Program-made: the position numbers and the translations under genes
In this document: in pieces, positions 9,062 to 11,812 of the stretch
Layout: every line of letters begins with the position of its first letter
Numbering within the stretch: position 1 is the stretch's first letter
NCBI RefSeq assembly: GCF_003935715.1
Contig: NZ_RHPP01000033.1
Location: 1-33,331, forward strand
Source: Stenotrophomonas sp. 278
GTDB taxonomy: Bacteria > Pseudomonadota > Gammaproteobacteria > Xanthomonadales > Xanthomonadaceae
DNA: 33,331 nucleotides
Direction of reading: 5' to 3'
Notes under the pieces: generated by a model
Told to the model about the DNA's origin: nothing
The model's input: only the letters and a program-made list of their open reading frames with translations
Databases searched by the model: none

Positions 9062-9174
9062 GGGAGCGGGCCGGATGTCCTCCGGAGGGACACTCCACGG
9101 CATGGATGCCGTGGAGTAGCCTACATGGACGTACTTGCGGCGTGTCCCGGAGCGAGGGCATCCGGCCCGCTCCC
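9062..9174 (-). repeat. Structured intergenic repeat, copy A
   Basis: A 73-base core (9082-9154) is identical, base for base, to the reverse complement of 11719-11791. The core holds a middle stem GGGACAC (9087-9093) with GTGTCCC (9142-9148) and an inner hairpin of 11 base pairs (9093-9103 with 9106-9116). Outer arms 9062-9077 and 9159-9174 are a perfect 16-base inverted repeat whose sequence differs from that of copy B. It lies 3' of ettA and 5' of the purine permease gene, both on the minus strand. Confidence 0.8.
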
Positions 9175-9221
9175 GCATGTGGTAATCAAAACGCCGCTCT
9201 TCGCGCAGAATCAATCGAAGC

Positions 9222-9255
9222 GTGAAACAAACCGGCCGCGCAGTGCGCGGCCGGT
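9222..9255 (-). terminator. Intrinsic terminator of ettA
   Basis: ACCGGCCGCGC (9231-9241) and GCGCGGCCGGT (9245-9255) form a perfect 11-base stem with an AGT loop. On the minus strand the stem is followed by TTGTTTC, and it starts a few bases after the ettA stop codon. Confidence 0.8.
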
Positions 9256-9261
9256 AGCTGA

Positions 9262-10926
9262 TTACTTCAGTGCCTTGAAGCGCAGGCGCTTCGGGGCGGC
9301 GTCGTCGCCCATGCGGCGGCGCTTGTCTTCTTCGTACTCGCGGTAGTTGCCCTGGAAGAACTCCACGTGCGAGTCGCCTTCGAACGCCAGGATGTGGGTC
9401 GCGATGCGATCCAGGAACCAGCGGTCATGCGAAATGACGAAGGTGTTGCCCGGGAACTCCAGCAGCGCATCTTCCAGCGCACGCAGGGTTTCGATGTCCA
9501 GGTCGTTGGACGGTTCGTCGAGCAGCAGCACGTTGCCACCCTGCAGCAGGGTCTTGGCCATGTGCAGACGACCGCGTTCACCGCCGGACAGCGAGCCCAC
9601 CATCTTCTGCTGGTCCTGGCCCTTGAAGTTGAAGCGGCCGATGTAGGCGCGCGACTGGATCTCGATGCCGTTGATGTTCAGGATGTCCAGGCCACCTGCG
9701 ATTTCCTGGAACACGTTGTGGTTGCCTTCCAGTGCGTCACGGCTCTGGTCGACGTAGGACAGCTTCACCGTCGGACCGACCACGATCTCGCCCGAATCCG
9801 GCTTTTCCTGGCCGGTGATCATCTTGAACAGGGTCGACTTACCGGCACCGTTCGGGCCGATGATGCCCACGATCGCGCCGGCCGGAACCAGGAAGCTCAG
9901 GTCGTCGAACAGCAGGCGGTCGCCGAACTTCTTCGACACGTTCTTGAACTCCATCACCGAGTTGCCCAGGCGTTCGCCCGGCGGGATGAAGATTTCATTG
10001 GTTTCGTTGCGCTTCTGGTAGTCCACCGACTGCAGCTCTTCCAGGCGGGCCAGACGGGCCTTGCCCTTGGTGCGACCACCCTTGGCGTTCTGGCGCGACC
10101 ATTCCAGTTCCTTCTGGATCGCTTTCTGGCGGGCCTTTTCCTGGTTGTCTTCCTGCTTCAGGCGCTCGTCCTTCTGCATCAGCCATTCGGTGTAGTTGCC
10201 CTTCCACGGAATGCCGCGGCCGCGGTCCAGTTCCAGGATCCACTCGGCGGCGTTGTCCAGGAAGTAGCGATCATGGGTCACCGCCACCACGGTGCCGGTG
10301 TAGCGGGCCAGGAACTGTTCCAGCCATTCCACCGACTCGGCGTCGAGGTGGTTGGTCGGTTCGTCGAGCAGCAGCATGTCCGGCTTCTGCAGCAGCAGGC
10401 GGCACAGTGCCACGCGGCGCTTTTCACCACCGGACAGCTTGCCGATCACGGCATCCCACGGCGGCAGGCGCAGCGCGTCGGCGGCCACGTCCAGCTGGTT
10501 TTCCAGGGTGTGCGCGTCGCCGGCAGCCAGGATGGCTTCCAGGCGTTCCTGTTCCTTGGCCAGCGCGTCGAAATCCGCGCCTTCCTCGGCGTAAGCCAGG
10601 TACACCGCGTCCAGCGCGGCCTGGGCCTGCAGCACTTCGCCGACGCCTTCCTCGACGGCTTCACGCACGGTCTTGGTCGGGTCCAGCTCCGGTTCCTGGG
10701 CCAGGTAGCCGACCTTGATGCCGGCCTGCGGGCGGGCTTCACCCTCGAAATCGGTGTCCACGCCGGCCATGATCTTCAGCACCGTCGACTTGCCGGCACC
10801 GTTCAGGCCCAGCAGGCCGATCTTGGCCCCCGGGAAGAACGACAGCGAGATGTCCTTGATGATCTGCCGCTTGGGCGGGACCACCTTGCTGACGCGGTTC
10901 ATGGTGTAGATGTATTGCGAGGACAT
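9262..10926 (-). CDS. ettA: Energy-dependent translational throttle protein EttA (ABC-F ATPase)
   Basis: EttA binds the ribosomal E site and gates the first steps of elongation according to the ATP/ADP ratio; it is cytoplasmic and has no membrane domain. Two ABC cassettes are visible: Walker A GLNGAGKST (residues 40-48) with signature LSGGEKRRVALC and Walker B MLLLDEPTNHLD, then a second Walker A GPNGAGKST near residue 358 with LSGGERGRLHMAK and VLLLDEPSNDLD. Between them lie the charged linker and arm typical of ABC-F proteins. The start MSSQYIYTMNRVSKVVPPKR matches EttA, and GGAGAG sits just upstream of the ATG; a longer frame reaching 10998 would run into the promoter. At 554 residues it is within one of the E. 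coli length. The gene stands alone, divergent from the RcnB-like gene. Confidence 0.96.
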   Translation of the reverse strand: MSSQYIYTMNRVSKVVPPKRQIIKDISLSFFPGAKIGLLGLNGAGKSTVLKIMAGVDTDFEGEARPQAGIKVGYLAQEPELDPTKTVREAVEEGVGEVLQAQAALDAVYLAYAEEGADFDALAKEQERLEAILAAGDAHTLENQLDVAADALRLPPWDAVIGKLSGGEKRRVALCRLLLQKPDMLLLDEPTNHLDAESVEWLEQFLARYTGTVVAVTHDRYFLDNAAEWILELDRGRGIPWKGNYTEWLMQKDERLKQEDNQEKARQKAIQKELEWSRQNAKGGRTKGKARLARLEELQSVDYQKRNETNEIFIPPGERLGNSVMEFKNVSKKFGDRLLFDDLSFLVPAGAIVGIIGPNGAGKSTLFKMITGQEKPDSGEIVVGPTVKLSYVDQSRDALEGNHNVFQEIAGGLDILNINGIEIQSRAYIGRFNFKGQDQQKMVGSLSGGERGRLHMAKTLLQGGNVLLLDEPSNDLDIETLRALEDALLEFPGNTFVISHDRWFLDRIATHILAFEGDSHVEFFQGNYREYEEDKRRRMGDDAAPKRLRFKALK

Positions 10927-10937
10927 GGGCTCTCCGA

Positions 10938-10969
10938 GGGCGCAATCCTGCGCCCGTTCCGTCAGGAAC
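10938..10969 (-). promoter_or_regulatory. Two adjacent hairpins in the ettA leader
   Basis: GGGCGCA (10938-10944) pairs with TGCGCCC (10949-10955), and directly beside it GTTCC (10956-10960) pairs with GGAAC (10965-10969). Both would fold in the ettA 5' untranslated RNA just before the ribosome site. Function is unknown. Confidence 0.4.
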
Positions 10970-10997
10970 AGTCGCAGTGGGAATTGGGATGTCGCCA

Positions 10998-11003
10998 ATT
11001 ATA
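10998..11003 (-). promoter_or_regulatory. Consensus -10 box upstream of ettA
   Basis: The minus strand reads TATAAT here, about 70 bases before the ettA start codon. A TTGTCA upstream (11015-11020) is only 11 bases away, too close for a standard -35, so the rest of the promoter is not recognised. Confidence 0.45.
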
Positions 11004-11083
11004 GCCGGAAGCGGTGACAACCGCCGGACAGCTCGGCCGGTGGGGCTTGCCGCCGCCTGAATGGGCCGTCAAGCGGGGAGAAA

Positions 11084-11112
11084 TGGAAACCGTTTCCAGC
11101 CGGAAACCGTTC
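11084..11112. promoter_or_regulatory. Palindromic operator candidate before the RcnB-like gene
   Basis: TGGAAAC (11084-11090), a central C and GTTTCCA (11092-11098) form a perfect palindrome. The half GGAAACCGTT recurs at 11102-11111, 17 bases further on, with the right arm decayed. The shape resembles LacI-family operators, but no regulator gene is adjacent. Confidence 0.4.
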
Positions 11113-11164
11113 AGACGCCGTCCGCATGATGGAAAGCGTCACTTCCCACCCAGCGAGAAACGCC

Positions 11165-11656
11165 ATGCGCATGAATCGAATTGTGGTCGGTACCGTTGCC
11201 GCGCTGCTGGCAGTGGGAACCGTCGCCCCGGCTTTTGCCGACGACCACCGCGGTCGCGGCCACGGCCACGACCGCCGCGAGTGGCGCGATGACCGTCGCG
11301 AACGGCGGGACGACCGCCGTGAGTGGCGTGATGATCGCCGGGAATGGCGCGATGATCGCCGCGAGGCCCGCCATGACCGTCGCTACTACAGCCCCGGCTA
11401 CTACCACCGTCCGGCCCCGCCGCCGCGCGTGGTCTATCGCCCGGCTCCGCGCCCGGTCTACGGCTACGGCTGGCAGCGTGGGCACCGCTACCGGGATTAC
11501 TACCGGGGCCCGGTCTACGTGGTCAACGATTACGGCCGCTATTCCGTCCGTCGTCCGCCGCACGGCCACCACTGGATCCGCGACGACCGCGGCAACCTGC
11601 TGCTGGTCGCGATCGCCACCGGGATCATCGCGGACTTCGTTATCAACGGGCGTTGA
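11165..11656 (+). CDS. RcnB-like periplasmic protein with charged heptad repeats
   Basis: A small secreted protein of 163 residues with a clear signal peptide (MRMNRIVVGTVAALLAVGTVAPAFA). It continues with a His/Arg/Asp-rich segment made of five 7-residue units of the form RREWRDD (11273-11377) and a Tyr/Pro/Arg-rich linker. The C-terminal region contains YVVNDYGRYSVRRPPHGHHW and ends LLVAIATGIIADFVINGR. This C-terminal pattern matches the RcnB family, whose E. coli member is a periplasmic protein needed for nickel and cobalt homeostasis; metal binding here is inference, though the His-rich stretch fits. The ATG at 11165 starts a good signal peptide; an ATG at 11171 is also possible and one at 11126 would spoil the signal. 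The gene is alone and is followed by a structured repeat. Confidence 0.8.
   Translation: MRMNRIVVGTVAALLAVGTVAPAFADDHRGRGHGHDRREWRDDRRERRDDRREWRDDRREWRDDRREARHDRRYYSPGYYHRPAPPPRVVYRPAPRPVYGYGWQRGHRYRDYYRGPVYVVNDYGRYSVRRPPHGHHWIRDDRGNLLLVAIATGIIADFVINGR
11273..11377 (+). repeat. Five 21-base in-frame tandem repeats in the RcnB-like gene
   Basis: Five consecutive 21-base units each encode a heptapeptide of the type RRE(W/R/A)R(D/H)D. The third and fourth units have the same peptide but differ in codon wobble positions, so the array is not very recent. Confidence 0.85.
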
Positions 11657-11697
11657 TCGGGTTCCTGCAAACGGCGGCGTTTCAATTCATCCGTGCT

Positions 11698-11812
11698 GGG
11701 GAGGCCGTCAGGCAGCCCCGCTCCGGGACACGCCGCAAGTACGTCCATGTAGGCTACTCCACGGCATCCATGCCGTGGAGTGTCCCTCCGGGGACTACCT
11801 GACGGCCTCCCC
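11698..11812 (+). repeat. Structured intergenic repeat, copy B
   Basis: The core at 11719-11791 is the exact 73-base reverse complement of the core at 9082-9154. It carries the same middle stem (11725-11731 with 11780-11786) and inner hairpin. Outer arms 11698-11712 and 11798-11812 are a perfect 15-base inverted repeat unrelated in sequence to the arms of copy A. It begins 42 bases after the RcnB-like stop codon, in the same orientation to that gene as copy A has to ettA. Confidence 0.8.

What the first reader, a model, noticed from the sequence alone, without database searches (positions are those of the whole stretch)
9062..11812. Two structured repeats with an identical 73-base core and unrelated but self-complementary outer arms
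The core at 9082-9154 equals the reverse complement of 11719-11791 at every base, including its middle stem and inner hairpin. The flanks differ in sequence (arms 9062-9077/9159-9174 and 11698-11712/11798-11812), yet each is perfectly complementary to its partner over 16 and 15 bases. Identical core plus compensating arms points to a folded three-tier element under selection, not a decaying transposon scar. Both copies have the same orientation relative to the gene before them (ettA, the RcnB-like gene), which suggests action in RNA at the 3' end of transcripts. Copy A could instead be the 5' leader of the purine permease, since it lies beyond an ettA terminator.
Basis: partly seen in the sequence, partly recalled or inferred. 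Interest (0 to 1): 0.72.

Follow-up and report, generated by a model that had tools for sequence, protein, structure and literature searches.

The report
Repeated two-loop RsmA-type RNA hairpins
Two near-identical folded repeats in this Stenotrophomonas-type genome belong to a large family of dispersed elements, over a hundred per genome in some bacteria, whose conserved loops match the binding site of the global RNA regulator RsmA/CsrA, so they may be a scattered, unrecognised sponge or binding platform for it.

Summary
In detail: a 73-nt core is repeated exactly (inverted), with different but perfectly self-complementary arms (16/16, 15/15). It is a family, not a pair: 67 covariance-model matches in this genome, 44 to 149 in five others, and matches in 51 of 274 sampled genomes of the class. 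It is a variant of Rfam TwoAYGGAY (RF01731; same clan as CsrB), an RNA of unknown function already predicted to bind CsrA. Copy A matches that model below its cut-off (36.9 against 43 bits). Both loops are C-ANGGAN-G hexaloops, the CsrA/RsmA recognition hairpin. Stems covary. Across 365 elements the outer stems carry 280 isolated G.T but only 50 A.C mismatches on the ANGGA strand, in every gene context and on both strands of a complete genome, so that strand is the folded, selected one. Neighbouring copies are head-to-head in 58 of 67 pairs, like REPINs. Best reading: a dispersed RsmA-binding RNA element. Main rival: a strand-specific single-stranded-DNA transposition substrate. Binding and transcription are untested here.

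The parts
9062..9174 (+). Copy A, whole hairpin, given on the ANGGA strand; lies between the 3' end of the ettA-like ABC gene and the start of a Xan_ur_permease-type gene, both on the - strand
   Evidence: gene names; R1 match 9080-9156 + 80.0 bits; RF01731 match 9048-9187 + 36.9 bits, E 6.1e-4 for the genome
9062..9077 (+). Copy A outer arm, 5' side
   Evidence: 16 of 16 complementary to 9159-9174
9159..9174 (+). Copy A outer arm, 3' side
9092..9117 (+). Copy A hairpin 1; hexaloop ATGGAT at 9102-9107 closed by C-G
9119..9141 (+). Copy A hairpin 2 (GCC/GGC, 5-nt 3' bulge CTTGC, TAC/GTA); hexaloop ATGGAC at 9125-9130
   Evidence: in the family TAC/GTA covaries with CCC/GGG and TCC/GGA
11698..11812 (-). 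Copy B, whole hairpin, given on the ANGGA strand; antisense to the RcnB-domain gene before it
   Evidence: R1 match 11793-11717 - 86.5 bits
11698..11712 (-). Copy B outer arm
   Evidence: 15 of 15 complementary to 11798-11812
11798..11812 (-). Copy B outer arm, partner
11756..11781 (-). Copy B hairpin 1 (loop at 11766-11771)
11732..11754 (-). Copy B hairpin 2 (loop at 11743-11748)
11941..12042 (+). Collapsed third copy: 5' flank joined to 3' flank of the element, hairpin missing; sits where the head-to-head partner of copy B is expected
   Evidence: query bases 2-35 match 5' flanks or spacers (L003, L069, L080; 88-93%), 27-103 match 3' flanks (L067, L021, L026 and others; 72-80%)
11864..11940 (.). 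Spacer shared with other head-to-head pairs of this genome
   Evidence: 82-95% identity to L013, L019, L022, L029, L069, L080 and others

Best explanation
Each copy is a dispersed RNA element of the TwoAYGGAY kind. SHOWN: a three-way junction whose outer stem is free in sequence but kept paired, with two hairpins ending in C-ANGGAN-G hexaloops; stems covary and loops do not; the ANGGA strand is the selected, folded one; the genome encodes a normal RsmA/CsrA. INFERRED: when the ANGGA strand is transcribed (read-through from a neighbour, antisense transcription or an own promoter), an RsmA dimer clamps the two loops, whose GGA motifs start 23 nt apart, while the long outer stem isolates and protects the platform whatever RNA it lies in. 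Many copies together form a distributed RsmA-binding reservoir, and single copies may protect or mark the RNA that carries them. Copies spread and are homogenised as repeats, often as head-to-head pairs, so a transcript crossing a pair in either direction always contains one ANGGA-strand platform.
For: Loops: with the loop columns masked, elements that had not themselves brought their locus in read ANGGAN in 31 of 31 (loop 1) and 30 of 31 (loop 2, the other mis-anchored); 4 more could not be anchored. Covariation. Wobble asymmetry G.T 280: A.C 50 in 365 elements, present in all four gene contexts (30:7, 39:10, 10:1, 14:4) and on both strands of complete genome G036 (17:2, 16:2), which argues against a transcription- or replication-strand mutation bias. 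The RF01731 matches at E <= 1 in G000 (5) and G036 (9) are all family members (checked), and Rfam puts TwoAYGGAY and CsrB in one clan, CL00106. Own RsmA (L317:277-477) closely matches solved CsrA/RsmA/RsmE proteins. RsmU, a 3'UTR sRNA bound by RsmA in the related Xanthomonas campestris (PMC7694677, passages read): at the same place after comEA in seven Xanthomonas genomes I see ACAGGAYGT and ACAAGGACGT sites, the type of loop 2 here (orthology inferred by position), though RsmU is not a family member. Ysr224, homologous on the other strand (E 5.8e-9), is reported transcribed from several copies in Yersinia ruckeri (PMC12112432, one passage read).
Against: No binding or expression data for these copies. 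Copy A is below the RF01731 gathering score and copy B is not in the RF01731 lists. The two fetched loci that are above that cut-off match R1 weakly (L061, 34 bits) or not at all (L060), so the two families differ. No promoter is evident by eye in the 5' flanks, and for 50 of 153 elements the ANGGA strand is antisense to both neighbours. Ysr224 is annotated on the opposite strand. csrA is found in 47 of 51 element-bearing genomes (235 of 274 overall, p = 0.18), and one of the four without it (G255) is 98% complete. The asymmetry is not significant in the small sets G149 (11:4), G298 (5:3) and G308 (4:2). G.T is also the better mismatch in single-stranded DNA (recalled), so the asymmetry does not by itself prove RNA. 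In RsmU, changing all four GGA motifs did not abolish RsmA binding (PMC7694677).
Confidence: 0.58

Rival explanations
1. A strand-specific single-stranded-DNA hairpin, the substrate of a transposase (REPIN- or RAYT-like); the loops and stems are recognised as DNA, and the head-to-head pair is the mobile unit.
For: High copy number and identical cores; head-to-head arrangement in 58 of 67 neighbouring pairs, with spacings of 84-88 bp in several genera; conserved immediate flanks and shared spacers; sites rarely shared between species (3 of 30 and 1 of 30); Y1 transposase domain somewhat commoner in carriers (41 of 51 against 145 of 223, p = 0.045); one-strand folding is also expected of such substrates.
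Against: The loops are exactly the CsrA hairpin, including which positions are free. No Y1 transposase was found in 10 of 51 carriers, 5 of them at least 90% complete, among them G298 with 132 copies. GTAG next to the hairpin is not conserved. Target-site duplications were not sought.
Confidence: 0.25
2. A generic structure at transcript ends (terminator or mRNA stabiliser, as claimed for Yersinia YPAL repeats; recalled), acting in either orientation without RsmA.
For: Strong folding on both strands; divergent gaps somewhat avoided (20 of 153 against 44 of 204).
Against: Convergent gaps are not enriched (49 of 153 against 65 of 204). It does not explain invariant GGA loops, one-strand wobble bias or the conserved 5-nt bulge; ettA already has its own terminator-like hairpin at 9231-9255.
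Confidence: 0.12
3. No selection on the fold: arms stay complementary because template switching corrects quasi-palindromes, and cores are kept alike by gene conversion.
For: Few one-sided changes in A1; identical cores with different arms.
Against: DNA-level correction predicts equal G.T and A.C; 280 against 50 is seen. Loop conservation across genera is unexplained.
Confidence: 0.05

Closest known systems
TwoAYGGAY RNA (Rfam RF01731; listed in PMC2864571; CsrA prediction in PMC4333381)
   Same: Two hexaloops AYGGAY on a junction closed by an outer stem that is poorly conserved in sequence; same strand; the RF01731 matches at E <= 1 in G000 and G036 are all family members
   Different: Both window copies fall short of the gathering score; hairpin 2 here is short with a conserved 5-nt 3' bulge where RF01731 has a long regular helix; loci above the RF01731 cut-off match R1 weakly or not; high copy number and head-to-head pairing were not in the passages that I read
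Ysr224 (Rfam RF02770), a multi-copy Yersinia sRNA
   Same: Homologous hairpins: L102 E 5.8e-9, L105 and L106 3.8e-5; several copies transcribed (PMC12112432, one passage)
   Different: Annotated on the opposite strand; the window copy B reaches only E 2.2
RsmU / CsrB / RsmY-type RsmA sponges
   Same: GGA motifs in hairpin loops; the same ACANGGANGT sequence type
   Different: Single-locus sRNAs; these are two-site platforms dispersed over the genome; the comEA 3' regions that would hold RsmU do not match the family model
REP / SMAG / REPIN / BIME repeats
   Same: Extragenic palindromes in high copy, inverted pairs with a fixed relative orientation and shared spacer
   Different: Larger three-way junction, no conserved GTAG foot (SMAG consensus seen in passages of PMC2613905), conserved protein-type loops, no consistent Y1 partner
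YPAL repeats of Yersinia
   Same: Long palindromes near gene 3' ends (recalled; listed as 168-bp families in PMC2267715, passages read)
   Different: Sequence not compared here

Membership tests
TwoAYGGAY (RF01731) | Covariance-model score at or above the gathering score (43 bits) | tested here: not met
   Copy A 36.9 bits, E 6.1e-4; copy B not listed there; neither listed in the cmscan of 8950-11950 at E <= 10. Genomes G039 and G042 of the same order have matches above the cut-off
TwoAYGGAY (RF01731) | Two hairpins with AYGGAY loops | tested here: met
   ATGGAT and ATGGAC in both copies
TwoAYGGAY (RF01731) | Junction closed by an outer stem of variable sequence | tested here: met
TwoAYGGAY (RF01731) | Long regular second hairpin | tested here: not met
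   Hairpin 2 is 3+3 pairs with a 5-nt bulge (RF01731 consensus shown)
RsmA/CsrA-binding RNA | ANGGA in hairpin loops | tested here: met
RsmA/CsrA-binding RNA | At least two sites spaced so that one dimer can bridge them (roughly 10-63 nt, recalled) | tested here: met
   GGA starts at 9104 and 9127 in copy A, 23 nt apart
RsmA/CsrA-binding RNA | RsmA gene present in the genome | tested here: met
RsmA/CsrA-binding RNA | Physical binding to RsmA | not testable with these tools
   needs gel shift or CLIP
RsmA/CsrA-binding RNA | Transcription of the ANGGA strand | not testable with these tools
   no transcriptome held; no promoter evident by eye
REPIN / RAYT system | Inverted pairs in fixed orientation with a shared spacer | tested here: met
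   58 of 67 neighbouring pairs head-to-head; spacer shared in the own genome
REPIN / RAYT system | GTAG (or CGTC) tag at the hairpin foot | tested here: not met
   No invariant GTAG in A1; CGTC was not looked for
REPIN / RAYT system | Y1-type transposase in the genome | tested here: inconclusive
   PF01797 in 41 of 51 carriers and 145 of 223 others, p = 0.045; own genome has 3 matches
YPAL repeats | Sequence similarity to YPAL | not tested
   no YPAL sequence was compared

The most novel reading that the evidence does not exclude
A repeat family found across the class that spreads like a REPIN but is kept as RNA: roughly 40 to 150 dispersed two-loop platforms per genome form a distributed RsmA/CsrA reservoir that sets free regulator levels, and each head-to-head pair guarantees one functional platform whichever neighbour reads through. 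It would be a domesticated (or parasitic) mobile RNA ligand of a global regulator.
Probability: 0.3. Interest if true: 0.85.

Novelty: new variant of a known kind. Interest (0 to 1): 0.62.

Why it matters
CsrA/RsmA is a global regulator, and its known antagonists are mostly a few dedicated sRNAs. If a repeat family with over a hundred copies in some genomes carries the same binding hairpins and is selected on one strand, then repeat content becomes part of the regulator's titration, and TwoAYGGAY, listed in 2010 and still of unknown function in the paper that I read (PMC4333381), gets a testable role in tractable bacteria. It would also link two Rfam entries (TwoAYGGAY and Ysr224) that were annotated on opposite strands.

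Tried and rejected
Rejected: a two-copy curiosity. Rejected, but weakly: insertion of the core into pre-existing terminator hairpins as the source of the arms. The two other occupied site-A loci (G014, G002) keep the position and orientation next to ettA but have other arms and another hairpin-1 stem, and both hold a head-to-head pair where G000 has one copy; strain-level empty sites are not available. Rejected: quasi-palindrome correction alone. Rejected: the RsmU region as a family member and sX9 as one (its one match, in L138 at 437-512, is not at the element).

Led nowhere: GTAG-hairpin control for wobble (25 hairpins, 5 mismatches in all); plasmids, phages and E. coli by BLAST (no match; copy A for the first two, L102 for E. 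coli); promoter in the flanks (by eye only); csrA co-occurrence (too common); PMC9788540 (passages on CsrA sRNAs of Alcanivorax; nothing on this family). The first gene-orientation count (194 elements) used crude gene calls and was replaced (153 elements; inside-gene, edge and far cases dropped and listed there). The background gaps include the element-bearing gaps, which makes that comparison conservative. In the first printouts of sites A and B 6 of 30 and 11 of 30 loci lay in the other orientation; all were re-read (site A: 500 bases beyond the ettA match; site B: the whole loci).

Selection to bear in mind: A1 holds 56 of the 67 sequences listed, themselves chosen by a pattern that fixes the loops, so A1 says nothing about loop conservation; the masked bystander test is the one to use. 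In A1 two of the five covariation measures are only slightly above shuffles (pairs with changes on both sides 22 against 19.6, 9 of 500 shuffles as high; further pair types 56 against 51.9, 33 of 500); three exceed all 500. The wobble counts need both loops and a paired inner stem to anchor an element. One search scored at most 17 candidates per genome and at most 150, so copy counts are lower bounds. At E <= 10 RF01731 also has a partial G000 match that is no family member (C77, E 5.2). Related copies are not independent; the per-locus sign test (56:10) and the per-context counts are the safer figures. Carrier counts for csrA and Y1 come from comparing the printed lists.
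Full report
WHAT IS THERE. The two cores (9082-9154 + and 11719-11791 -) are identical at 73 of 73 bases and the outer arms are complementary 16 of 16 and 15 of 15. All four strand folds are far more stable than shuffles. Rfam at gathering thresholds reports only RNase P and an FMN riboswitch in the window.

A FAMILY, NOT A PAIR. BLAST with the core finds 48 matches in the own genome, 7 of them exact; 13 of the 48 are the hairpin of already counted copies read backwards. 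Of 61 genomes searched, the own one included, 31 have a match, in 4 of 20 genera. A covariance model (R1) from 56 aligned copies (A1) finds 67 matches in the own genome, 51 positive genomes of 274 drawn from the class (45 of 221 genera), and 122, 132, 106, 149 and 44 matches in G036, G298, G143, G308 and G149, all lower bounds because candidates were capped. BLAST of copy A found nothing in plasmids or phages.

ANATOMY. On the ANGGA strand (plus for copy A, minus for copy B) the element reads: variable arm, inner stem GGGAC/GTCCC, hairpin 1 with a six-base loop ATGGAT, a short junction, hairpin 2 (GCC/GGC, a 5-nt bulge on the 3' side, TAC/GTA) with loop ATGGAC, and the arm's partner. In A1, 22 of 28 pairs have changes on both sides (shuffled mean 19.6); 344 compensated cells stand against a shuffled mean of 104 and at most 75 in slid controls. 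In hairpin 2, TAC/GTA changes to CCC/GGG or TCC/GGA while the loop stays. A1 was chosen with a pattern that fixed the loops, so loop conservation was tested apart: with loop columns masked, and counting only elements that had not themselves brought their locus in, loop 1 is ANGGAN in 31 of 31 and loop 2 in 30 of 31 (the other mis-anchored); four further elements could not be placed by geometry. The wider held-out set gives 131 and 129 of 132 but includes loci found by a loop pattern. The free positions are the N positions of the CsrA consensus (consensus recalled).

WHICH STRAND. A pair G-C can drift to G.T or to A.C; on the other strand these swap. In 365 anchored elements with 10,063 Watson-Crick outer-stem pairs, isolated mismatches on the ANGGA strand are 280 G.T, 50 A.C and 179 others (first pass 191 against 31 in 233 elements). 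Per-element and per-locus sign tests agree (124:21 with 88 ties, and 56:10). The bias appears in all four gene contexts and on both strands of G036, and in G143, where elements mostly lie antisense to the gene before them (16:5). It is not significant in the small sets G149 (11:4), G298 (5:3) and G308 (4:2). So the ANGGA strand is folded and selected, as RNA or as single-stranded DNA.

PLACEMENT. With codon-model gene calls, 153 elements give convergent 49, tandem 50 (3' end of the gene at the element's 3' side) and 34 (the reverse), divergent 20; gaps over 120 bp in the same loci are convergent 65, tandem 95, divergent 44. Convergent gaps are therefore not enriched, divergent ones are somewhat avoided (p = 0.05), and tandem orientation is not significantly biased overall (p = 0.10), though G143 is (16:2).

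PAIRS AND SPREAD. Of 67 neighbouring pairs under 600 bp, 58 are head-to-head, 5' ends of the ANGGA strands facing, with spacings of 84-88 bp in several genera. In the own genome the spacer is shared between pairs, and copy B's expected partner is present as a collapsed remnant at 11941-12042. Orthologous sites are mostly empty: site A is occupied in 3 of 30 genus loci (G000, G014, G002; the latter two with a head-to-head pair and other arms) and site B in 1 of 30. G031, which also has exact cores elsewhere, has neither copy.

WHAT IT RESEMBLES. RF01731 (TwoAYGGAY) matches copy A over its full length at 36.9 bits, E 6.1e-4, below its cut-off of 43, and its matches at E <= 1 in G000 (5) and G036 (9) are all R1 elements (checked). 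An earlier search with fewer scored candidates and a cmscan of the region had not shown copy A. Of the loci above the RF01731 cut-off, the two fetched match R1 weakly (L061) or not (L060). Rfam groups TwoAYGGAY with CsrB (clan CL00106). PMC4333381 (passages read) calls TwoAYGGAY a family of unknown function, predicts CsrA binding and notes a poorly conserved external stem; PMC2864571 (one table row seen) lists it for gut metagenomes, gamma-Proteobacteria and Clostridiales. Ysr224 (RF02770) is homologous on the opposite strand; PMC9029176 lists it among the most prevalent sRNAs and PMC12112432 reports several transcribed copies (passages read). My searches for 'TwoAYGGAY', CsrA/RsmA with sponge and repeat words, 'Ysr224', RsmA sequestration in Xanthomonas and Stenotrophomonas with RsmA showed, in titles and abstract openings, no paper that joins these points; the library is open-access only and I read few of the listed papers.

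MECHANISM. The own genome encodes RsmA (67 aa), which matches solved CsrA-family proteins including the 2jpp series (that 2jpp is an RNA complex is recalled). RsmU is bound by RsmA in X. campestris (PMC7694677, passages read); the comEA 3' regions of seven Xanthomonas genomes, where RsmU should lie, show ACAGGAYGT and ACAAGGACGT, the same type as loop 2 here. I infer that ANGGA-strand transcripts present a two-loop RsmA platform. The rival, a single-stranded-DNA mobile element, is fed by the pairing, spread, flanks and a slight excess of Y1 transposases in carriers (41 of 51 against 145 of 223, p = 0.045), but weakened by the exact CsrA-type loops and by the lack of a Y1 transposase in 10 of 51 carriers, 5 of them at least 90% complete. 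csrA is present in 47 of 51 carriers against 188 of 223 others (p = 0.18), too common to be informative, and one 98%-complete carrier (G255) shows no csrA. The two readings can both be true: a mobile repeat whose RNA binds RsmA.

Noticed in passing
window 7603-7670: Perfect 26-bp inverted repeat with GTAG-type ends, a SMAG/REP-like dimer (SMAG consensus); a different repeat family from the finding.
   Followed up: partly
window 11249-11382: Five 21-bp repeats inside the RcnB-like gene, encoding a charged DDRREWR-type repeat.
   Followed up: no
window 24664-24849: Array of fourteen overlapping copies of a 9-bp-period repeat, perhaps coding.
   Followed up: no
window 31770-32120 and 19730-19875: RNase P RNA and an FMN riboswitch.
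   Followed up: no
A1 columns 58-62: The 3' bulge of hairpin 2 is of a few conserved types (CTTGC, TTCAC, TTTAC and near variants) across genera; no role is known to me.
   Followed up: no
L366-L379 (G143): In G143 the stem foot is often framed by TTAACTCAA on the 5' side and GAACTTACC-like bases on the 3' side, as if a fixed insertion or processing site.
   Followed up: no
L012, L014, L034, L035, L037, L091 and L091, L093: Copies interrupted near the loop of hairpin 1 by an unrelated palindromic insert ending in GGGTTGGGCAGGACGCCC: apparently another repeat that targets this hairpin.
   Followed up: no
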